From: Actinomyces sp. ZJ308
GTDB taxonomy: Bacteria; Actinomycetota; Actinomycetes; Actinomycetales; Actinomycetaceae
Reading direction: 5' to 3'
DNA length: 64,000 nucleotides
Assembly: GCF_011752065.1 (NCBI RefSeq)
Contig: NZ_JAAIJY010000003.1
Location: 62,001 to 126,000 of the forward strand
Shown: positions 30,541 through 48,769 of the stretch, piece after piece
Position numbering within the stretch: the stretch's first letter is position 1
How the letters are laid out: every line of letters begins with the position of its first letter
Made by a program: the position numbers and the translations under genes
The notes under the pieces: model-generated
Told to the model about the DNA's origin: nothing
Seen by the model: only the letters and a program-made list of their open reading frames with translations
The model's database searches: none

Positions 30541-31542
30541 ATGACTGATTCACAGTACCCAGGTTATTCAGGTGACGGTTCCCAATCCGGTGACAACCCT
30601 CAGGGTGCTCCGGGCTACGGGGCACAACCCGGCTATGGCCCTCAGGGGGGAGATGCTCCCGGCTACGGTCCGCCACCCGGGTACGGAGCCGGATATGGAG
30701 CACAGCCCGGCAGTAACCAGCAACCCGGTTACGGCTCCCAGCCCGGCGCCGCCCCGGGTTACGGCCCTCAGTTCGGCGCGGCCCCGGGATACGGTCCCCA
30801 GCCCGGCGCGGCCCCGGGATACGGTCCCCAGCCCGGCGCGGCCCCGGGGTACGGTCCCCAGGCCGCCATGGGTGCCGGAGGAGGTGTACCCCCATATTCC
30901 GGAGGGGTTATGGGTGGCGTGCCGATGAGTGTTGGTGATGGCCTGTCCTGGGCCTGGTCCAAGTTCAAGGAGAACGCACTTATTCTCATTGTTGGGATCG
31001 GGCTGTGGACCATCCTCTCAAGAGCTGGATTCGATGCCCACATCACCCTCAATAACCAGGAGTATGGTGTCAGTACGGGAATTCCTTTCGGTAACGTCAT
31101 CTCCTTTGTTGTGGGACTGTTCGCTCCCATCGTGATCGCCAACATGTCGCTCAAGGTGGCTACTGGGCGACCTCTGGAGTGGAGTGACCTCTTCACGTTC
31201 CCGAACATGGGGGCGGGTGTTTTGGCGATCCTTCTAAGTACGCTCGCCACGTTGGTCGGTATACTTCTGTGTATTGTCTCCGGCATCATCGTGACCTTCC
31301 TTCTCTACTACTCCGTCTACTTCACCGTGGACAGGGGTGTGGACGGCATCGAGGGCATGAAAGCATCCTGGAGGACCCTGTCCAGCCACGTCGGTGAGCT
31401 CCTCCCCTTCGCGCTGACCGGTGTCGGCCTCTACATCCTCGGTACGATCACGCTGGTCGGCTGGCTTGTGACGATCCCGCTGGCGGTGCTCATGACCGGT
31501 TACTCCTACGTGCGCATCCAGGGCTACGACGTCGTCCGCTGA
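30541..31542 (+). CDS. Membrane protein with Gly-Tyr-Gly/Pro-Gln repeat N-terminus
   Basis: The 333-residue protein has a soluble front of about 120 residues rich in Pro, Gly, Tyr and Gln, with repeats of GAAPGYGPQP, then about five membrane segments (ALILIVGIGLWTIL, VISFVVGLFAPIVIA, VLAILLSTLATLVGILLCIVSG and others) in a DUF975-like arrangement. Such proteins with GYG fronts are common in Actinobacteria; the job is unknown. The GYG front could drive self-association in the cytoplasm. A hairpin follows the gene. Confidence 0.75.
   Translation: MTDSQYPGYSGDGSQSGDNPQGAPGYGAQPGYGPQGGDAPGYGPPPGYGAGYGAQPGSNQQPGYGSQPGAAPGYGPQFGAAPGYGPQPGAAPGYGPQPGAAPGYGPQAAMGAGGGVPPYSGGVMGGVPMSVGDGLSWAWSKFKENALILIVGIGLWTILSRAGFDAHITLNNQEYGVSTGIPFGNVISFVVGLFAPIVIANMSLKVATGRPLEWSDLFTFPNMGAGVLAILLSTLATLVGILLCIVSGIIVTFLLYYSVYFTVDRGVDGIEGMKASWRTLSSHVGELLPFALTGVGLYILGTITLVGWLVTIPLAVLMTGYSYVRIQGYDVVR
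30745..30861 (+). repeat. Nearly four 30-bp tandem repeats
   Basis: Thirty-base units encode GAAPGYGPQ(F/P). Units 2 (30775-30804) and 3 (30805-30834) are identical at DNA level, unit 1 and partial unit 4 differ at a few bases. The array keeps frame. Confidence 0.9.
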
Positions 31543-39904: not shown

Positions 39905-40174
39905 TCAAGCTAGCGCCTTCTCGAGTGTCTCACGCATGAACTCGCTGCGAGTCTCGCCTCGAGCCTCAGCCTTACGGTCTAGAGCGTCTCGGTGAGAGCG
40001 TGGGACTTTGAATGCGATGGTGACAAGTTCCTCGTCTGAGATTCGAGGCCTTCCTGGAGAAATGATGAACTCTCCTGGAGTTCCGGGGTAGTTCCCTCGT
40101 TCTGCTGCCTGAGCGAGGCTCTCAATCTCCTCGTCAGTGAGTGTGGCTCCGCTCTTCGTTCTGTAGGTGCTCAT
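39905..40174 (-). CDS. Ribbon-helix-helix antitoxin of BrnT-like pair
   Basis: The 89-residue protein has an acidic front (TLTDEEIESLAQAAERGNYPG) and a C-terminal ribbon-helix-helix (LVTIAFKVPRSHRDALDRKAEARGETRSEFMRETLEKAL). DNA-binding end at the C-terminus and position behind the toxin match BrnA-type antitoxins. It overlaps the toxin by four bases (ATGA). It probably neutralises the toxin and represses the operon. Confidence 0.75.
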   Translation of the reverse strand: MSTYRTKSGATLTDEEIESLAQAAERGNYPGTPGEFIISPGRPRISDEELVTIAFKVPRSHRDALDRKAEARGETRSEFMRETLEKALA

Positions 40175-40446
40175 ATTTCCTCCTTTCCAATCTTTAGCTC
40201 CTGAGCCATCTTGTGGGTGAGTCGCATGGCATGAAATATCAATAGGCTGCTGTCATCGAGCTCCACTCCAACCATCTCGAGTAGTCGTCCATGAGAGTCG
40301 GCTCCGGCTGCTGCGTAGTATTCAGGTGGGTCATAGTTCCTTCGGCGGACTGCGATGGCGCTGCGCCAGGCCGACTCGACGTCCTCGACCTGGATGTCGG
40401 GGTGACGGCGGGTGATGCGAGGGTGAACGGTGATCCTGTCCAACAT
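40171..40446 (-). CDS. BrnT-like small toxin
   Basis: The 91-residue protein has DVESAWRSAI near residue 23, a GADSHGRLLEMVGVEL strand pair and LLIFHAMRLTHKMAQEL at the end. The same order of motifs (DVE.AW..A, G.D...LLE.V.V, iiHA.RL) appears in the 61-297 protein, so the two are homologous. The fold guess is BrnT/RelE-like. It precedes its antitoxin in the operon. The start ATG 40446 lacks a strong ribosome-binding site. Confidence 0.65.
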   Translation of the reverse strand: MLDRITVHPRITRRHPDIQVEDVESAWRSAIAVRRRNYDPPEYYAAAGADSHGRLLEMVGVELDDSSLLIFHAMRLTHKMAQELKIGKEEI

Positions 40447-40468
40447 CCGCGTAACCTTCTACGACACG

Positions 40469-40483
40469 TTTTGTTGAACAAAA
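40469..40483. promoter_or_regulatory. 15-bp palindrome between toxin and TetR genes
   Basis: TTTTGTTGAACAAAA is a perfect 7-1-7 palindrome in the divergent region between the toxin (start 40446) and the TetR gene (start 40566). It could be the operator of either regulator. Confidence 0.6.
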
Positions 40484-40565
40484 TTCTAGCACGTTCTGCT
40501 GTGGTGTCGCTTCCCAACGGGGCGGATCGCGGGCATGCTCTGTTCATGAGCGAGACGAGTGAGCG

Positions 40566-41183
40566 ATGAGCCCGCGGGGGCGGCGGCCGGCGGGGAGTCC
40601 GGACACGCGTGAGGCCATCCTGGCGGCGGCCCGCGCCGCCTTCGCCCGCGACGGCTACCAGACCTCCCTGCGCGGTATCGCGCGCGACGCCGGGGTCGAC
40701 CCTGCATTGGTCCACCACTACTTCCCGGATCGGGCCATGCTCTTCGCCAAGGCCATCATCGAGCCGTTCGCCGGCGTTCAGGCCGACCTGATGGGCCGGG
40801 CCGCCGCCATCACCGAGCTGGAGCCGGAGAAGTTGGGGGAGGGGATCGTGCGCTCCTTCATCACCCTGTGGGATGAGGCCGGCGCCGACCGCTTCACCGC
40901 CCTCATCCACGCCGTGCTCGGTCAGGGCGGCAACATCACCCCTTTTCGAGACTTCATCGCCGCCGGCATCCTTCAGCCCATCGTCACACGCTTCTGCTCC
41001 GACCGCCCCGAGCTGCGCGCCCAGCTCATTGCCAGTCAGGTCATCGGGCTGGGCATGACCCGGTGGGTTGCCCGGATGGACCACATCGCCGGACTCGATG
41101 CTGAGGCCGTTGCCGCACTCGTCGGCCCCACCATCCAGCGCTACGCCTTCGACGACCTGCCAGACGTCGCCGATCCCGCCTGA
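40566..41183 (+). CDS. TetR family transcriptional regulator
   Basis: The 205-residue protein has the TetR DNA-binding front (TREAILAAARAAFARDGYQTSLRGIARDAGVDPALVHHYFPDRAMLFAKAI) and an all-helical ligand-binding part of the TetR_C_33-like kind (ILQPIVTRF, LIASQVIGLGMTRWV). It lies upstream of an ABC exporter on the same strand and may control it, or bind the palindrome at 40469-40483, or both. The ligand is unknown. Confidence 0.87.
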   Translation: MSPRGRRPAGSPDTREAILAAARAAFARDGYQTSLRGIARDAGVDPALVHHYFPDRAMLFAKAIIEPFAGVQADLMGRAAAITELEPEKLGEGIVRSFITLWDEAGADRFTALIHAVLGQGGNITPFRDFIAAGILQPIVTRFCSDRPELRAQLIASQVIGLGMTRWVARMDHIAGLDAEAVAALVGPTIQRYAFDDLPDVADPA

Positions 41184-41218
41184 GGTCCGTTCCCACCGCG
41201 GCTTCCGGGTCGAATTTT

Positions 41219-41337
41219 GTCCACATGGGACGACTTTGAAGCCGCTTTTCCAGTGCTGATTAACTTTAAAACGCTCTGACCAGCGCAGATGTGAACCGCC
41301 TTGGCCGAGCGCTCCGTCAAAGTCGTCCCGTTTGGAC
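41219..41337. repeat. Long imperfect inverted repeat in the TetR-ABC gap
   Basis: Arms 41219-41239 and 41317-41337 match at 19 of 21 positions in inverted orientation and enclose 77 bases. No gene lies in the 273-base gap. It could be a large stem, a relic of a small mobile element, or a terminator. Confidence 0.65.
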
Positions 41338-41448
41338 AGTTTCACGCTCCTTCCTGCTCCTACGGCGCCCCCGGTGGGCCCGCCCGCGCAGGCTGATCCA
41401 GTCGCGCCTGCACAGTCCCCTGGACAGAAGGCCTGTCATAGACCTATA

Positions 41449-41464
41449 TTCATCATATGATGAA
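41449..41464. promoter_or_regulatory. 16-bp perfect palindrome over the ABC gene start
   Basis: TTCATCATATGATGAA includes both candidate ATG codons of the ABC ATPase gene and abuts a TATATT -10-like hexamer (41445-41450). A repressor bound here would block the promoter or start codon; an mRNA hairpin could hide the start. Confidence 0.65.
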
Positions 41465-42293
41465 AGGCGATGAAGGAGACGCGCCCCGAGAGTCGGGGGC
41501 CGGCAGCCAATCGCACGACTCAGCCCGGAAGACCAGCACTCCCGCGAGGCCCGCGTCGCCGGCCGTCACCACGACGGACCTGCGCGTGACCCGCGGAGGC
41601 AAGGAGATCCTCCACGGCCTGGACCTGAATTTGGAGCCCGGTACCATCACCGGCCTGCTCGGCCCCTCGGGCTGTGGCAAGACCACCTTCATGCGCACGC
41701 TCGTCGGCGTCCAGCACTACCGCGGACAGGTAAAGGTCCTCGGGCACGTCCCCGGCGCCTCCGCCGTGCGCGGCCGGGTCGGCTACGTCACCCAGGACCA
41801 GGCCGTCTACACCGACCTGACCGCCCGCCAGAACTTGCGCTACTTCGCCTCCCTGGCCGGCAGTCGGGCCCGCGACCTGGACGAGGTTCTCGACGTCGTC
41901 GGGCTGAGCGCCCTGGCCGACCGGCCCGTGGCCACCTACTCCGGAGGGGAGGCCGGGCGGGTGAGCCTGGCCTGCGCGCTCGTGGCTGACCCCGACCTGC
42001 TCGTCATGGACGAGCCGACCGTCGGCCTGGACCCCGTCACCCGCGAGGAGCTGTGGTCCACCTTCCATGCCCTGGCTGAGCGCGGTGCCACCCTCTTGGT
42101 CTCCAGCCACGTCATGGATGAGGCCTTCCGCTGCGACCAGGTTCTCCTCATGCGCCAGGGCCGCATCCTGGCCACCACCACCACCGTCGGCGACCTCCTG
42201 GCCAGCACCGGGGCGGAGACCGTGGACGCCGCCTTCCTGGCCGTCATCGCCGACTCCGAGGCCGCTCCTGCGCAGAAGGGAGGGCAGCACTGA
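41457..42293 (+). CDS. ABC transporter ATP-binding protein
   Basis: The 278-residue protein has Walker A GPSGCGKTTF, Q-loop VTQDQAVYTDLT, signature YSGGEAGRVSLACAL (the usual SGGQ.. with Gly-Glu), Walker B LLVMDEPTVGLD and switch His SSHVMDEA. It is a DrrA/NodI-type drug or polysaccharide exporter ATPase. It starts at ATG 41457 or 41460 inside a palindrome and overlaps the permease gene by TGATG. Confidence 0.92.
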   Translation: MMKGDEGDAPRESGAGSQSHDSARKTSTPARPASPAVTTTDLRVTRGGKEILHGLDLNLEPGTITGLLGPSGCGKTTFMRTLVGVQHYRGQVKVLGHVPGASAVRGRVGYVTQDQAVYTDLTARQNLRYFASLAGSRARDLDEVLDVVGLSALADRPVATYSGGEAGRVSLACALVADPDLLVMDEPTVGLDPVTREELWSTFHALAERGATLLVSSHVMDEAFRCDQVLLMRQGRILATTTTVGDLLASTGAETVDAAFLAVIADSEAAPAQKGGQH

Positions 42294-43039
42294 TGCACCT
42301 GCGCACCTACCTGGCCACCACCCGCCGCATCCTCACCCAGCTGCGCGCCGATCGGCGCACGGTCGGCCTCATCGCGATCGTGCCCGCGGCGCTGCTGACT
42401 CTGCTGTACTTCGTCTACCGCGACTACCCCGGCGCGGATCTGTTGTTCAACCGCATCGCCGTCTCCATGATGGCCATCCTGCCGATGGTCGTCATGTTCC
42501 TGGTCACCAGTGTCGCCATGCTGCGCGAGCGCGTCGGCGGCACTCTGGAGCGGCTGTGGACCACACCGATCCACCGGGCCGACCTCCTGTTCGGCTACGC
42601 CACCGCCTTCGCGCTGACGGCCGTCATCCAGTCACTCATCCTGTGCGCCGTGGCCGCGTGGGGGCTGGACGTGGACATCTCCGCCGCCTGGGGGTGGGTG
42701 GTGCTCACCGCCCTGGTCGACGCCTTCGTCGGGGTGTCCCTGGGGCTGCTGGTGTCGGCCTTCGCGCGCACCGAGTTCCAGGCCGTCCAGTTCATGCCCG
42801 TGGTCATCGCGCCTCAGCTCTTCCTGTGCGGGCTCCTGGTCAGTCGCGACCAGCTACCGCGCGCCCTGGAGGTGATCGGCGACGCCCTGCCCATGAGCTG
42901 GGCGGTCGACGCCGTCACCGAGCTGACCACGGCCAGCGAGCCGTCCGACGATTTCTTCCGATACCTGGCCTACCTGGTCTGCTTCGGCCTGGTGATCCTG
43001 GGAGTCGCGGCCTCCACCGTGCCGCGTAGGACCCGCTGA
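42293..43039 (+). CDS. ABC-2 type permease
   Basis: The 248-residue protein has six membrane segments in the ABC-2 arrangement (MMAILPMVVMFLVTSVAMLRERVGGTLERLWTTPI, IQSLILCAVAAWGL, PVVIAPQLFLCGLLV, YLAYLVCFGLVILGVAA). The ERxxGTLERLxxTP block is characteristic of ABC-2 exporters of the YadH/DrrB kind. It forms an exporter with the ATPase upstream. The substrate is unknown; a TetR gene upstream points to an inducible efflux system. Confidence 0.9.
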   Translation: MHLRTYLATTRRILTQLRADRRTVGLIAIVPAALLTLLYFVYRDYPGADLLFNRIAVSMMAILPMVVMFLVTSVAMLRERVGGTLERLWTTPIHRADLLFGYATAFALTAVIQSLILCAVAAWGLDVDISAAWGWVVLTALVDAFVGVSLGLLVSAFARTEFQAVQFMPVVIAPQLFLCGLLVSRDQLPRALEVIGDALPMSWAVDAVTELTTASEPSDDFFRYLAYLVCFGLVILGVAASTVPRRTR

Positions 43040-43124
43040 TCAGGGATTGGACAGTAACGGCGGGCACGAGGACTGTGGGTCCTCGTGCCCGCTACCTGGT
43101 TCCGGGTGGGGTTAGGGTTGCCTC

Positions 43125-43997
43125 ATGTGGATCGTCTTCGCCTGCGGCTCAGCACTTTTTGCCGGCATCACCGCTGTCCTGGCCAAGGAGGGGATCCGCA
43201 CCACGGACTCGACCGTGGCCACGGCGCTGCGCACCTTCGTGGTGCTGGCCGGTGCCTGGGGCATGGTGTTCATCGTCGGATCGCAGGCTGATCTCACGCA
43301 CCTGGACGCTCGTAGCACCGGACTGCTGGTGCTCTCAGGGTTGGCGACCGGAGCCTCCTGGTTGTGCTACTTCAAGGCGCTCCAGCTCGGCAACGTCAGC
43401 AAGGTCGTCCCGATCGACAAGCTGAGCACCGTGCTGACGGTGCTGCTCGCCCTCATCTTCCTGGGGGAGAGGGTGAGCCTTATCGGGGCGCTCGGGGTCG
43501 TGCTCATTACGGTGGGGACGCTGCTGATGCTCGACGCCGATGACCTGCGCGGCCTGCCCCGTGCGGTTCGCGACGGCGGGGGCTGGCTGCTCTACGCGCT
43601 CGGTTCAGCCTTCTTCGCGGCGCTCACCGCGATCCTCGGCAAGGCCGGTATCACTGGGGTGGAGTCGAACCTCGGCACCGCGATCCGTACCGGGGTGGTT
43701 CTAGTGATGGCCTGGCTGATGGTTGCCATCACCGGGAAGCTCCACGAGGTCCGCAGTGTGCCGCGCGGGGAGCTCGGCTTCGTCCTGGCCTCCGGGGCTG
43801 CGACGTGCGCCTCGTGGCTCTGCTACTACCGGGCTCTCCAGGACGGCCCCGCCAGCGTGGTCGTCCCCATCGACAAGCTGAGCGTGCTCGTGACCGTCCT
43901 CTTCTCCGCCCTTGTCCTGCGAGAGGTTGTCGGTAAGCGCTACCTTGTTGGGCTAGCCCTGCTCATCGGTGGGACTCTCGCGATGGTGGTTCTCTGA
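43125..43997 (+). CDS. EamA/DMT superfamily transporter
   Basis: The 290-residue protein has ten membrane segments made of two EamA repeats. Each ends with the same block: ASWLCYFKALQLGNVSKVVPIDKLSTVLTVL in the first and ASWLCYYRALQDGPASVVVPIDKLSVLVTVL in the second. Relatives move amino acids, sugars or drugs. About 700 bases downstream lies a decayed copy of its second half, showing a recent tandem duplication. Confidence 0.9.
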   Translation: MWIVFACGSALFAGITAVLAKEGIRTTDSTVATALRTFVVLAGAWGMVFIVGSQADLTHLDARSTGLLVLSGLATGASWLCYFKALQLGNVSKVVPIDKLSTVLTVLLALIFLGERVSLIGALGVVLITVGTLLMLDADDLRGLPRAVRDGGGWLLYALGSAFFAALTAILGKAGITGVESNLGTAIRTGVVLVMAWLMVAITGKLHEVRSVPRGELGFVLASGAATCASWLCYYRALQDGPASVVVPIDKLSVLVTVLFSALVLREVVGKRYLVGLALLIGGTLAMVVL

Positions 43998-44058
43998 GTC
44001 CTTGCAACCAAGAGCCTCGATGCCGGAGTGAGGAAGAACCGGTCGCTGGGACCTTGGT

Positions 44059-44189
44059 ACTTGGTGCCTCCACTTAGTGTCTTAGTGCCTCGTCTTGGTG
44101 CCCTGACTTAGTAACTTAGTGCTTCGACTTGGTGCCTTGTGGAGCCGACTTACAGACTCAACTTAGTGATCCGACTTGATGACTTGGTG
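44059..44189 (+). repeat. Degenerate direct-repeat array of ACTTRGTG
   Basis: Eleven copies of ACTTAGTG, ACTTGGTG or close variants start at about 44059, 44073, 44081, 44094, 44106, 44114, 44127, 44149, 44161, 44174 and 44182. Gaps alternate around 8 and 13 bases, a period near 21. The array is non-coding. It resembles iterons in form, but no replication gene is adjacent. Confidence 0.7.
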
Positions 44190-44291
44190 ACTCAACACGC
44201 TGACTGATCTCTGCAGAACCGTGCCTGGGTGGGTATACCGCTGCCTTCATGCGATCGAACCAATACCTCGCTGGTCGACATACCCAGGCCG

Positions 44292-44322
44292 GACGGTAGA
44301 CAACATCCTGTTGTCTACCGTC
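44292..44322. terminator. Hairpin upstream of the EamA remnant
   Basis: GACGGTAGACAACA (44292-44305) pairs perfectly with 44309-44322 over a 3-base loop. It may be the terminator of the intact EamA gene displaced by the duplication. No T tract. Confidence 0.5.
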
Positions 44323-44330
44323 TACTTAAT

Positions 44331-44703
44331 TTGCTTACGGCTCAGCCTTCTTCACTGCGTTCTCCGCGATCTTCGGCAACACCTGCGTCGCTGGATAGCG
44401 GGGTGAACCTTGGTACTGCGATTCGTACCGGGGTGGTGCTGGTGATGGCCTGGGTGATGGTTGCCGTCACCGGGAAGCTCCACGAGGTTCGCAGTGTGCC
44501 GTGTGGGGAGCTCGGCTTCGTTCTGGCGTCCGGGGCTGCGACGTGCGCCTCCTGACTCTGCTACTACCGGGCCCTCCAGCTCGGCAATGTCAGCAAGGTC
44601 GTCCCCATCGACAAACTGAGTGTGCTCGTCACTGTCCTCTCATCCGTCTTCGTCCTGCGGGAAGCCGTCAGGAGACGTTACCTCGTCATGCTGAGAACGC
44701 CGT
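44331..44703 (+). pseudogene. Decayed copy of the second half of the EamA gene
   Basis: Positions 44404-44690 closely match 43671-43960 of the intact transporter (NLGTAIRTGVVLVMAW, GKLHEVRSVPCGELGFVLASGAATCAS, then YRALQLGNVSKVVPIDKLSVLVTVL). TGG of the ASWLCYY block is TGA here, the front is frameshifted and there is no start. The LQLGNVSKVVPIDK stretch matches the first EamA repeat rather than the second, so the copy looks like a recombinant of both halves. Confidence 0.88.
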
Positions 44704-44720
44704 AGGTGAAATAGTTTATA

Positions 44721-45770
44721 TTACTGATTTAACAATAAAGGATTTCCATCTTCGTTAAATTCCACCCATTTCGCCCCTTCGGGAAGTCCTTCTTTATTCA
44801 ATTCAAGGTCTTGAGGGAAAGAAATTTTGTCTTCATCTTTAAGGTTCACGTTAAATAAAGATCCGCGAAAGTTAACCCCCTCCTTAAACGTCACGCCAGA
44901 GAAGTCTGCTGCTCCAACAAAGTGTGCCCCTGTATGTTGGTAGCTGGAAGACTTGCATTCTCCTGGAGAGCATAATGGACAGCTGAAGCTAACTTGTTTT
45001 TCGAATATGGAGCCCGTGAATTTTGTGTCGCCATAAAACTTTGTTCCACAAAAAGCGACGTCTTTTTCGAAGTGAATGAACTTAAATCGATGTTCCAGTG
45101 CTGAAATATTTTTGAATTCTGAATTCGAAAAGTTGACCGTACTTTTGAAGTGAGCGTTATCGAACTCCGCTCTCCCAAAGTATGCGTTATAAAAGTTGGC
45201 GGCCTTGAAGAATGTTGCTTCTTTAAAGCCGGCTTTTTCTTCAATGGAGAGACCCGTAAAACTGCAGGTTGAAACCAGAGTTGTCTCTTGAAGATTGATT
45301 GAACTAATGCGAGCTAGGTTTAGGCTAATATCTTCCACTAGCGTAGTTCGGTGAAGATCTAAATCAAGATAACTCCATTGGCTTGTGCCTTTTCTAGGTA
45401 CTCTCTCTGTGCGGTTTGATATTGCATTCCAAATCGTTGATTCTATGGCGTGGTCTAATCGTGTAGGTATGGAGCGATTGGTTCGAAGGTAGCCGCATAG
45501 GATTTCGACAACGCGTTTGTTATAATCAACCCCGTACTTTTCGCTTCCGTAGGTATCGGCGACGTCGGCCAACGCGTAGACACCTGCGATGCGAACCTGA
45601 GGTGATTCGGAGCCCAATTGTTGAACTGCGTCAGCAAGTTTTTGTCGGCTTCAGTTTCTTCTAGGTGCGCTCGGTCCTTTTCCGCACCAGACTGCTCTCG
45701 GTACTTAATGACAAGATAGCCGACTCCTCCTATTCCACCAATGGTGGTCAAGGTTGTCTTGACTTGGTCT
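44721..45770 (-). pseudogene. Frameshifted pentapeptide-repeat protein gene
   Basis: The 3' part (44721 to about 45630) encodes pentapeptide-type repeats (FKEATFFKAANFYNAYFGRAEFDNAHF and CGTKFYGDTKFTG-like units) after a helical LGSESPQVRIAGVYALADVADTYG block. The 5' part (about 45640 to 45751) gives a membrane segment then YREQSGAEKDRAHLEETEAD in another frame. They meet at a run of five A residues in the message (TTTTT at 45639-45643). One extra A would join them as EADKKLADAVQQLGSESP, the expected sequence. The region is AT-rich relative to the core. Function of the intact family is unknown. Confidence 0.85.
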
Positions 45771-45817
45771 AACGGATCTGCTGTTAAACGATGTCATCCT
45801 GAAAATAGTCGATCAGG

Positions 45818-46144
45818 CTAGCTGCCTGAACCCCATACGGCACTGAGGAGTGTATATGCAATTAACCCGAAAAGCACCCAGATTGTAATCGCAAGAAATA
45901 GCGGCAGTCTTCTTTTTCTTAAATAAAGCGTGGCGATAAATGGTGTTATAGCGATGCCGACAGAAAAGACAAGTGCCCTGAAGTCGTAATTGTATTCATT
46001 GTTGATTCTGAATTCAATTCCCAGTAGGTAGCAGAGGGTTGTTGTTGATGTAGTTAAAAATACTGTCGCTACGATCGCTTCTACTGCGTAAGTCTCTATT
46101 GTGTTTCTGATGCGACTTTTGTTTGTTTGAGTCTGCTCGTTCAT
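45818..46144 (-). CDS. Small AT-rich membrane protein of unknown function
   Basis: The 108-residue protein has a polar front (NEQTQTNKSRIRN) and three membrane segments (IVATVFLTTSTTTLCYLLGI, ALVFSVGIAITPFIATLYL, PLFLAITIWVLFGLIAYTLL). No family is recognised. Its base and codon composition is clearly more AT-rich than the core genes, as in the pentapeptide gene next to it, which suggests they arrived together. Confidence 0.6.
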   Translation of the reverse strand: MNEQTQTNKSRIRNTIETYAVEAIVATVFLTTSTTTLCYLLGIEFRINNEYNYDFRALVFSVGIAITPFIATLYLRKRRLPLFLAITIWVLFGLIAYTLLSAVWGSGS

Positions 46145-46287
46145 TCGTTTCCGGCTTTCGTGATATGCGATTCAATTGTTAAGTGGGGTGTGGGGTATTG
46201 CTGCTATAGACTACAGCAACTACATCGACGCGTGTTCTTGTTGGTCTGATCGCTCTCATGCACGTTGCGCAGTACCATCGGAGCACG

Positions 46288-47490
<1,203 letters not shown>

Positions 47491-47561
47491 GACTGGGAGG
47501 CGCGAAGCATTCATACCTCACGAAAACGTCGAATCATCTGTTTGCATGACGTGGATTGTGC

Positions 47562-47576
47562 TATAGTTACGAACTA
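47562..47576 (+). promoter_or_regulatory. Promoter region and operator-like palindrome of the islet
   Basis: TATAGT (47562-47567) is the best -10 in an AT-rich leader. TAGTT-ACG-AACTA (47564-47576) is a perfect inverted repeat over it, placed for autoregulation. The spacing to the TTGCAT upstream is short (14), so the -35 is uncertain. Confidence 0.4.
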
Positions 47577-47641
47577 AGAAGTTCCGCGCGGATGGTGTGA
47601 TCTATTGCGTGAACTGATATCTAACGAGACCGGAGAGGGCG

Positions 47642-48769
47642 ATGACTACAATCATCTCAATGTTCAACCATAAAGGTGGGGTTAGTAAAACCACCACAGT
47701 ATTTAACTTGGCTTGGAGGTTAGCTAAATCTGGGAAACGGGTTATTATGGTGGACGCCGATCCCCAATGTAATCTCACTGGTGTGGTTCAAGGCTTGAAC
47801 CCTATCTGGTCCGACGGTGAATTTGCTGAGGTTTCGGATACCCAGGAAAGAGAGTATGCCGAAGTTCAGGATCGTGTTGAGAGCGAATGGGCGGGCATCG
47901 AAGATAAATCTCTTTATGAGGCGCTTCGCCCGGCTTTTGAATCTGAGCCAAGACTTATGGAGCCGGTTGAGTGTATTCCCGTCGATGGCTGCTCGGGGTT
48001 ATTTCTTCTTCCTGGAAGTCTTAGGCTCGGAGAGTATGATGTCACTTTGAGTGTGGCCTCGGAGCTCAGTTCAAGTCTTCTTTCTTTTAAGAATGTTCCG
48101 GGGGCGGCCAATTATCTCCTGCGCACAACTGCCGATGCGATTGATGCGGATTATGTCATAGTTGACATGAATCCAAGTTTAGGCGCTCTTAATCAGAATC
48201 TTGTATGCATTAGTGATTTACTTATAGTTCCAACAGCGCCAGACTATTTCTCTGTGATGGCTTTGAGGTCGCTTGCTCAAATTCTACCTCGGTGGATAAG
48301 GTGGGCAAAGAGAGCAAGTAAGAATGAAATCTTGCGCAGCGCGTCTTACCCGTTCCCTGAGCCTAAACTTAAGTTGGCGGGAGTGGTAATTCAACGCTAT
48401 CGGCTATACAAGTCTCCAACCGAAGATAACTTGTATGGGACCCCTTCTGGGTCATTTGCTGCGTGGATTGAGCGTGTATCGAAAGCAGTTTCTGAAAACT
48501 TTGTGCCAAGTCTCCGGGATGCTGGAATGCTATTCGATGAAGATGAGTATAAGCGTGCAGGAGTGCCTAGTTCTCTAGTCTTAGCTAGGATTCAAGAGTT
48601 CAACAGCTTGTTGCCGAAGTCTCAGGAATATAGAGTGCCTGTCTATGAGCTGACGGATAAGCAGTTAAGGCAAGCTGGCGTGGTACTAGATGCGTCTAAA
48701 AAGCAGATTCGTAGCCTATCGAGAATCTTTGAGGAATTCGCGAGTCGCGTCATCAAGTTGAATGGGTGA
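47642..48769 (+). CDS. ParA/MinD-like ATPase paired with HEPN protein
   Basis: The 375-residue protein has the deviant Walker A motif KGGVSKTTT with signature lysine K11 and K16, the A' motif VDADPQCNLTG (D40), and Walker B YVIVDMNPSLGALN (D175). These mark the ParA/MinD/Soj family that switches between dimer and monomer on ATP. Residues 50-150 form an unusual insertion and the C-terminal 130 residues are unrelated to plasmid ParA by eye. There is no parB or plasmid replication gene. GGAGAGGG lies just before the ATG. It overlaps the HEPN gene by GTGA, so the two products are likely made together and act as one system. AT-rich codon use points to transfer. Confidence 0.88.
   Translation: MTTIISMFNHKGGVSKTTTVFNLAWRLAKSGKRVIMVDADPQCNLTGVVQGLNPIWSDGEFAEVSDTQEREYAEVQDRVESEWAGIEDKSLYEALRPAFESEPRLMEPVECIPVDGCSGLFLLPGSLRLGEYDVTLSVASELSSSLLSFKNVPGAANYLLRTTADAIDADYVIVDMNPSLGALNQNLVCISDLLIVPTAPDYFSVMALRSLAQILPRWIRWAKRASKNEILRSASYPFPEPKLKLAGVVIQRYRLYKSPTEDNLYGTPSGSFAAWIERVSKAVSENFVPSLRDAGMLFDEDEYKRAGVPSSLVLARIQEFNSLLPKSQEYRVPVYELTDKQLRQAGVVLDASKKQIRSLSRIFEEFASRVIKLNG

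What the first reader, a model, noticed from the sequence alone, without database searches (positions are those of the whole stretch)
44059..44189. Iteron-like array of ACTTRGTG, period about 21 bases
Eleven degenerate direct repeats with gaps alternating near 8 and 13 bases put copies on one DNA face every two turns. There is no protein-coding reason. It may be a relic of a replication origin, a regulator array, or slippage product.
Basis: seen in the sequence. Interest (0 to 1): 0.5.

Follow-up and report, generated by a model that had tools for sequence, protein, structure and literature searches.

The report
Relic of a Schlafen-gene linker array
The repeats are the leftover middle of a lost bacterial gene; in related bacteria the same repeats sit inside the intact gene, where one DNA motif is read in all three reading frames and may also be a docking site for the gene's own DNA-binding domain.

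Summary
The array is real: 10 copies of ACTTRGTG with at most one mismatch in 44059-44189, mostly 8 or 13 bases apart. It is not an iteron. Of 21 same-genus (Actinomyces) genomes with such an array, 11 carry it on the opposite strand inside an intact gene: Schlafen AlbA_2, HATPase_c_4, then a winged helix. It encodes the linker before the winged helix. Six have decayed genes; four, this window included, keep little or nothing but the array. So 'no protein-coding reason' is wrong for the family and true only of this relic. Yet the repeat is a DNA unit: copies lie in all three frames; repetition exceeds protein plus codon usage in 27 of 37 related genes; linker DNA varies with winged-helix type. 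Other lineages carry period-11 and period-12 versions, and one 12-base unit also occurs in viral contigs outside recognisable Schlafen genes. I propose, unproven, that the winged helix binds the array in its own gene. Against: the unit is absent upstream of the gene, array conservation is mixed, and many relatives have no repeat.

The parts
44059..44189 (-). The array: 10 copies (<=1 mismatch) of ACTTRGTG (CACYAAGT on the - strand, the coding strand of the gene in relatives); relic of the linker-coding stretch
   Evidence: orthologous arrays inside intact genes; stops in all three - strand frames here
43125..43997 (+). EamA-like transporter gene, left neighbour; a same-cluster gene lies left of the array or gene in several relatives
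   Evidence: Pfam EamA 1.8e-36
44339..44708 (+). Degraded partial second copy of the transporter gene, right of the array (limits approximate); a comparable partial copy is seen in G014 and G021
46258..47490 (+). PhoH-like gene, right-hand neighbour that places the array at the same site as the intact gene in A. oris
   Evidence: Pfam PhoH 3.3e-94; order (clusters c7, c1, c2)

Best explanation
(1) Shown by comparison: the array is what remains of a gene on the minus strand between an EamA transporter gene and a PhoH gene. In relatives that gene encodes a Schlafen AlbA_2 domain, a histidine-kinase-type ATPase domain (HATPase_c_4) and a C-terminal winged helix (Fic-like_C); the array is the DNA of the linker just before the winged helix. 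Here body and winged helix are gone. (2) Shown: in the intact genes the repeat is a DNA unit, not a peptide unit: CACYAAGT, at steps of 8 or 13, is read in all three frames (HQV, S[P/L]S, TKS), and the variable base is not T in the one frame where T would be a stop. (3) Inferred, about 0.45: the unit is a binding site of the gene's own winged helix, placed inside the coding sequence and exchanged together with that helix, so that the protein can dock on its own gene, for autoregulation or to hold itself inactive. The stated confidence is for steps 1 and 2.
For: 21 of 49 same-genus genomes match the spaced pair; the reversed-pattern control gives 1 match in all. Of these 21: 11 intact genes containing the array, 6 decayed (G015, G024, G025, G028, G029, G043), 4 with little or nothing else (window, G014, G021; G035 with weak traces). 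Domains from Pfam on two proteins; AlphaFold2: linker 381-436 below 50 pLDDT, winged helix about 80-88, overall 48 from 11 sequences. Frames: 17, 28 and 22 exact copies in frames 0, 1, 2; T at the variable base 0 of 17 in frame 0, 33 of 50 elsewhere. Repetition beyond protein and codon usage in 27 of 37 genes, lower third-position GC in the linker in 36 of 37; Gln codon CAA 72 of 108 in linkers, 48 of 343 in bodies, 13 of 71 in winged helices (29 genes). Linker DNA follows the winged helix with body held fixed, partial Spearman 0.46, p=0.0005. Period-11 units read in three frames in L238 and L249. GAGTCRCGGCTA shared by two plasmid genes and viral contigs.
Against: Binding was not tested. No exact unit within 400 bases upstream of the 11 intact genes, 4 stray one-mismatch copies. 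The absence of T in frame 0 is partly forced by choosing open frames. Repeats and lower GC could come from recent duplications. All 7 type D linkers show no 8-mer excess, nor do 3 others of the 37. Of 8 cross-gene pairs tested, 5 share more 7-mers than simulated (p<=0.05), 3 do not. Only 2 of 15 readable PF13749 proteins from the phylum show such repeats, and 3 of 11 plasmid loci show none. Array identity exceeds the neighbouring body in 8 of 15 pairs, is lower in 6 and equal in 1. Joint exchange of linker and winged helix can arise from linkage alone. No unit of the Actinomyces kind in viral contigs.
Confidence: 0.85

Rival explanations
1. Protein-only linker: the repeat is a coding minisatellite. 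Block duplications lengthen a disordered hydrophilic linker; the unit is tolerated in every frame because each reading is hydrophilic, and the DNA has no role of its own. The window holds its relic.
For: Linker predicted disordered; readings hydrophilic in all frames; many relatives have peptide-like 12-base repeats; array conservation mixed.
Against: Units of 8, 13 and 11 bases shift the frame; codons in the linker depart from the gene's own usage; linker DNA varies with winged-helix type; the 12-base unit of the Azotobacter gene uses CGG and CTA three times each, codons seen 1 of 29 and 1 of 52 times in its body, and the same unit lies in viral contigs outside such genes.
Confidence: 0.4
2. 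Phase-variation switch: unit gain or loss of 8 or 13 bases shifts the frame and turns the winged helix off and on.
For: Unit steps are not multiples of three; in G024, G028 and G029 pieces of the winged helix align in another frame from the array onward.
Against: Those copies also carry lesions elsewhere; 11 species keep the frame open.
Confidence: 0.07
3. Free-standing regulatory array still under selection in this window, independent of the lost gene.
For: Between array-only G014 and G021 the array is 175/188 identical, against 1478/1811 at fourfold sites (p=2.6e-5), 49/60 and 94/123 in the flanks; window against G014 and G021 114/148 and 117/148, flanks 0.50-0.53.
Against: Window pairs are not above fourfold sites (2142/2649, p=0.24; 1148/1470, p=0.84); the window alignment has 40 gapped columns and repeats align easily; a mechanical open frame of 64 codons spans the array in G014.
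Confidence: 0.1
4. Iteron array of a replication origin, or its relic.
For: Direct repeats at 8 and 13; a ParA-like gene 3.5 kb away.
Against: No plasmid or phage match better than chance; in relatives the array is inside a gene; no replication initiator was seen among the frames I read, though I ran no profile search for one.
Confidence: 0.01

Closest known systems
Schlafen-family RNase fused to a minimal histidine kinase and winged helix, linked to BREX and related loci (PMC12839542; 12 of 28 passages shown)
   Same: Same order of domains as the gene that carries the array in relatives; one homologue lies between brxC and pglX, one between restriction subunits S and R.
   Different: The passages I saw do not mention repeats in the linker. 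In the Actinomyces loci with the EamA and PhoH neighbours I saw no BREX or restriction genes among the frames, but ran no profile search for them.
RptR, a small repressor of restriction-modification islands that binds three direct repeats (PMC12255303; abstract and passages)
   Same: A DNA-binding regulator near defence genes that binds short direct repeats.
   Different: A 9-kDa protein with a palindromic site in its promoter; here the repeats are inside the coding sequence.
Plasmid iterons (from general knowledge)
   Same: Tandem direct repeats at near-helical spacing.
   Different: Inside a gene in relatives, no plasmid match, no initiator gene seen.
Coding minisatellites and phase-variable repeats (from general knowledge)
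   Same: Tandem units inside a coding sequence, some with frame-shifting length.
   Different: Frame kept open in 11 species, unit tied to winged-helix type.

Membership tests
Schlafen AlbA_2 / HATPase_c_4 / winged-helix gene (carrier of the array in relatives) | The three domains in this order in the carrier gene | tested here: met
   Two of the 11 intact proteins scanned: SLFN_AlbA_2 9.2e-21 and 3.9e-23, HATPase_c_4 2.6e-25 and 5.5e-26, Fic-like_C 1.2e-14 and 7.7e-15
Schlafen AlbA_2 / HATPase_c_4 / winged-helix gene (carrier of the array in relatives) | The window itself still encodes the gene | tested here: not met
   Only linker-length matches at the array; the one genome match is a distant paralogue on another contig, 64.6 bits
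Schlafen AlbA_2 / HATPase_c_4 / winged-helix gene (carrier of the array in relatives) | RNase or anti-phage activity | not testable with these tools
   No NCBIfam model reaches its cut-off; PADLOC gives partial matches to pAgo-type models, best 1.8e-15
Iteron-type replication origin | Initiator gene beside the array | not tested
   No profile search for initiators; frames of 40000-48500 listed only
Iteron-type replication origin | Similar array on plasmids or phages | tested here: not met
   Best E-values 2 and 6
Operator array bound by the gene's own winged helix | Specific binding | not testable with these tools
   Needs gel shift or an in-vivo binding assay
Operator array bound by the gene's own winged helix | DNA-level unit that varies with winged-helix type | tested here: met
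   type D shows no 8-mer repeat excess
Operator array bound by the gene's own winged helix | Unit at the gene's own promoter | tested here: not met
   No exact copy within 400 bases upstream in 11 genes
Phase-variable coding repeat | Unit number varies between strains of one species | not testable with these tools
   The genome sets hold one genome per species

The most novel reading that the evidence does not exclude
Many bacterial Schlafen/HATPase/winged-helix genes carry the DNA target of their own winged helix inside their coding sequence, as an array that doubles as the disordered linker; array and winged helix are exchanged together as a cassette, and some phages carry the same units outside such genes, as decoys or triggers. 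The window keeps a fossil of one such array.
Probability: 0.4. Interest if true: 0.85.

Novelty: new variant of a known kind. Interest (0 to 1): 0.6.

Why it matters
If the inferred part is right, a class of putative anti-phage proteins carries its own binding site within its gene, which gives a direct handle on how bacterial Schlafens are controlled and what they sense. Even without binding, it is a clear case of one DNA motif read in three frames inside a coding sequence, and a warning that iteron-like arrays between genes can be gene fossils.

Tried and rejected
Iteron or origin: no plasmid or phage match better than chance. RNA element: no Rfam match in the window at gathering scores. Dispersed repeat: the own genome has one such array. 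Promoter operator: unit not upstream of the intact genes. Protein scans of viral contigs with L249 and L259 found no relative; with L255, 8 loci, of which L265, L267, L268, L271 and L272 show repeats (L267, L271 and L272 alike), L269 one unit, L270 none, and L266 was not readable. Actinomyces unit in viral contigs: none. The GAGTCRCGGCTA array gives no match in the phage and E. coli records, and the Azotobacter gene none in E. coli; one phage record with a distant protein match was not followed. In the two plasmids the array was found only in the gene, in the 25.0 and 21.7 kb I read. L416-L418 were not analysed.

Rows dropped: the 37 genes are de-duplicated open frames of at least 380 codons, in the loci held then, that match body (E<=1e-40) and winged-helix (E<=1e-3) models built from 11 Actinomyces proteins; broken copies and genes with other winged helices are left out. 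One search used 29 genes with boundaries set by hand-written patterns. In one search, 9 of 24 PF13749 loci (minus-strand matches) were not read. Of 11 plasmid loci, repeats are seen in 7 (L254 degenerate), none in L256, L261 and L264, and L258 was not readable. Other plasmid hits, the Legionella ones among them, were not fetched. Of 11 viral stretches I read the surroundings of 6.

Full report
Observation. The array is confirmed at 44059-44189: ten copies of ACTTRGTG with at most one mismatch, six exact, at steps of 8 or 13 bases apart from one step of 34 that holds a degraded copy. The window and composition controls do not come near it (best 2 elsewhere on that strand; at most 3 and 4 in controls).

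Where it sits. To the left is an EamA transporter gene (43125-43997), to the right a degraded partial second copy of it (about 44339-44708), then a pentapeptide-repeat frame and a PhoH gene (46258-47490). The window is part of contig C34 (214,854 bases) of a 3.28-Mb genome. The genus is Actinomyces: same-genus genomes coincide with named records, for example G001 with A. oris WE8B-23 (contig lengths agree). The species of the window is not known.

What it is. The own genome has one such array. Of 49 same-genus genomes, 21 including the window match two spaced copies with at most one mismatch; the reversed-pattern control gives one match in all. G002 also has one single pair elsewhere with a mismatch, which I take as chance. 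I fetched flanks for the other 20 and clustered their reading frames. In 11 the array lies inside an intact frame of 513-540 aa on the opposite strand. Pfam, run on two of these, gives SLFN_AlbA_2, HATPase_c_4 and Fic-like_C, with the array in the gap between the last two. AlphaFold2 gives a disordered linker there and a confident winged helix after it, from a shallow alignment with overall pLDDT 48. Six genomes have decayed copies (G015, G024, G025, G028, G029, G043). The window, G014 and G021 keep the array with no recognisable body, and G035 keeps it with weak traces. The order transporter, array, PhoH matches the surroundings of the intact gene in A. oris. Stops interrupt all three minus frames here. 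The array is therefore a gene fossil. Full-length genes without it exist in the genus (G048, G010, G041, G020, G012). Of these G048 is type D (L202) and G012 is type C with GAGCAAGT units (L206); A. oris CCUG 34288 (L119, on a contig of the same length as the G020 one) is type D too.

The unit is a DNA unit. In the 11 intact genes exact CACNAAGT copies (65 of 67 with C or T at N) fall in frame 0 (17), frame 1 (28) and frame 2 (22), read as HQV, S[P/L]S and TKS. In frame 0 the variable base is never T, a stop; in the other frames it is T in 33 of 50. This is partly forced by choosing open frames, but it explains the R of the motif. Steps across the 21 arrays are mostly 8, 13 and their sums 21 and 34, with a few others (20, 23, 35, 54). 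Against simulated linkers with the same protein and the gene's own codon usage, 27 of 37 related genes have more repeated 8-mers (p<=0.01); the ten others are all seven of type D, L221, L223 and L225. Third-position GC is lower in the linker in 36 of 37. Gln is CAA in 72 of 108 linker cases, 48 of 343 in bodies and 13 of 71 in winged helices (29 genes).

Wider family. Tessaracoccus, Pseudopropionibacterium massiliense and an actinobacterial MAG show CACYAAG at 13/8/13 in the same linker. Of 666 gene pairs, 157 have bodies at least 75% identical but different winged-helix types (mean winged-helix identity 0.46). Tessaracoccus L120 and Corynebacterium pacaense L123 share 92% of the body, 45% of the winged helix and 1% of linker 7-mers. 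Linker DNA follows the winged helix with the body held fixed (partial Spearman 0.46, p=0.0005) more than the body with the winged helix held fixed (0.21, p=0.004). With bodies 55-80% identical, same-type pairs share 0.171 of 7-mers (n=34), different-type pairs 0.030 (n=111). In 5 of 8 chosen pairs the sharing exceeds codon simulation (p<=0.05), in 3 it does not. This fits a cassette and does not prove binding.

Other lineages. L238 and L249, from other lineages of the phylum, have 11-base units running through the three frames; they are 2 of 15 readable PF13749 loci. Plasmid genes have 12-base units: ACCCCNCAAGTN in Deinococcus and Methylomonas, GAGTCGCGGCTA in Azotobacter (between brxC and pglX) and GAGTCACGGCTA in Pseudanabaena (beside a DNA methyltransferase). 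In the Azotobacter gene CGG and CTA are used 1 of 29 and 1 of 52 times in the body. A degenerate search for this coding in viral contigs gave 11 stretches; 8 carry exactly GAGTCRCGGCTA, in two sets with different gene content (5 and 3 contigs, alike within each set). A narrower pattern gave 10 stretches, those 8 and 2 new ones. In the 8 whose surroundings I read, no Schlafen-like frame covers the array; I judged this by eye, and small mechanical frames do overlap some. Of 72,556 plasmid records, the 45-base viral array matches only the two Schlafen genes just named.

Is the fossil still constrained? Between array-only G014 and G021 the array is 175/188 identical, against 1478/1811 at fourfold sites of nearby genes (p=2.6e-5), 49/60 in the left flank and 94/123 in the right. 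Window against G014 and G021 is 114/148 and 117/148: not above fourfold sites (2142/2649, 1148/1470), but above the flanks (0.50-0.53) and the transporter gene's own fourfold sites (125/191, 116/191). In 15 other pairs, intact or decayed, the array is more alike than the adjacent body in 8, less in 6, equal in 1. Repeat arrays align easily. This is mixed evidence.

Literature. The domain set is described as Schlafen RNases with a minimal histidine kinase and winged helix, linked to BREX-type loci in at least 1017 taxa (PMC12839542; 12 of 28 passages shown). RptR (PMC12255303; abstract, outline and passages) is a different protein binding promoter repeats. Searches for the repeat peptides, in-gene operators, the domain names and bacterial Schlafens listed no paper that I recognised as treating linker repeats (listings only, some cut, except the two papers named). 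The library is open-access only, so this is weak evidence of novelty.

Verdict. In this window the array is the relic of a linker-coding repeat, not an origin. As a lead it is stronger: an in-gene DNA array that varies with its neighbouring winged helix. Binding is inferred and untested.

Noticed in passing
L420, L421, L422, L426, L429; L423, L424, L428; L432, L433: IMG/VR contigs carry GAGTCRCGGCTA arrays outside recognisable Schlafen genes, the same 12-base unit as in the linkers of the Azotobacter and Pseudanabaena plasmid genes.
   Followed up: partly
L120 and L123; L092 and L098: Schlafen-type genes with 92-96% identical bodies but different winged helices and linkers, as if the C-terminal part were exchanged as a cassette.
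   Followed up: partly
47642-48769: A ParA-like (AAA_31) gene between the PhoH gene and the next conserved gene, in a stretch absent between those two genes in 8 of 8 relatives where both were found.
   Followed up: no
44292-44322: Perfect inverted repeat of 14 bases with a 3-base loop just right of the array.
   Followed up: no
44721-45617: Minus-strand frame with pentapeptide repeats (Pentapeptide_3, 1.6e-18), right of the transporter-gene fragment.
   Followed up: no
30730-30865: Tandem repeat of period 30, 4.5 copies, the highest-scoring one in the window; the period keeps frame.
   Followed up: no
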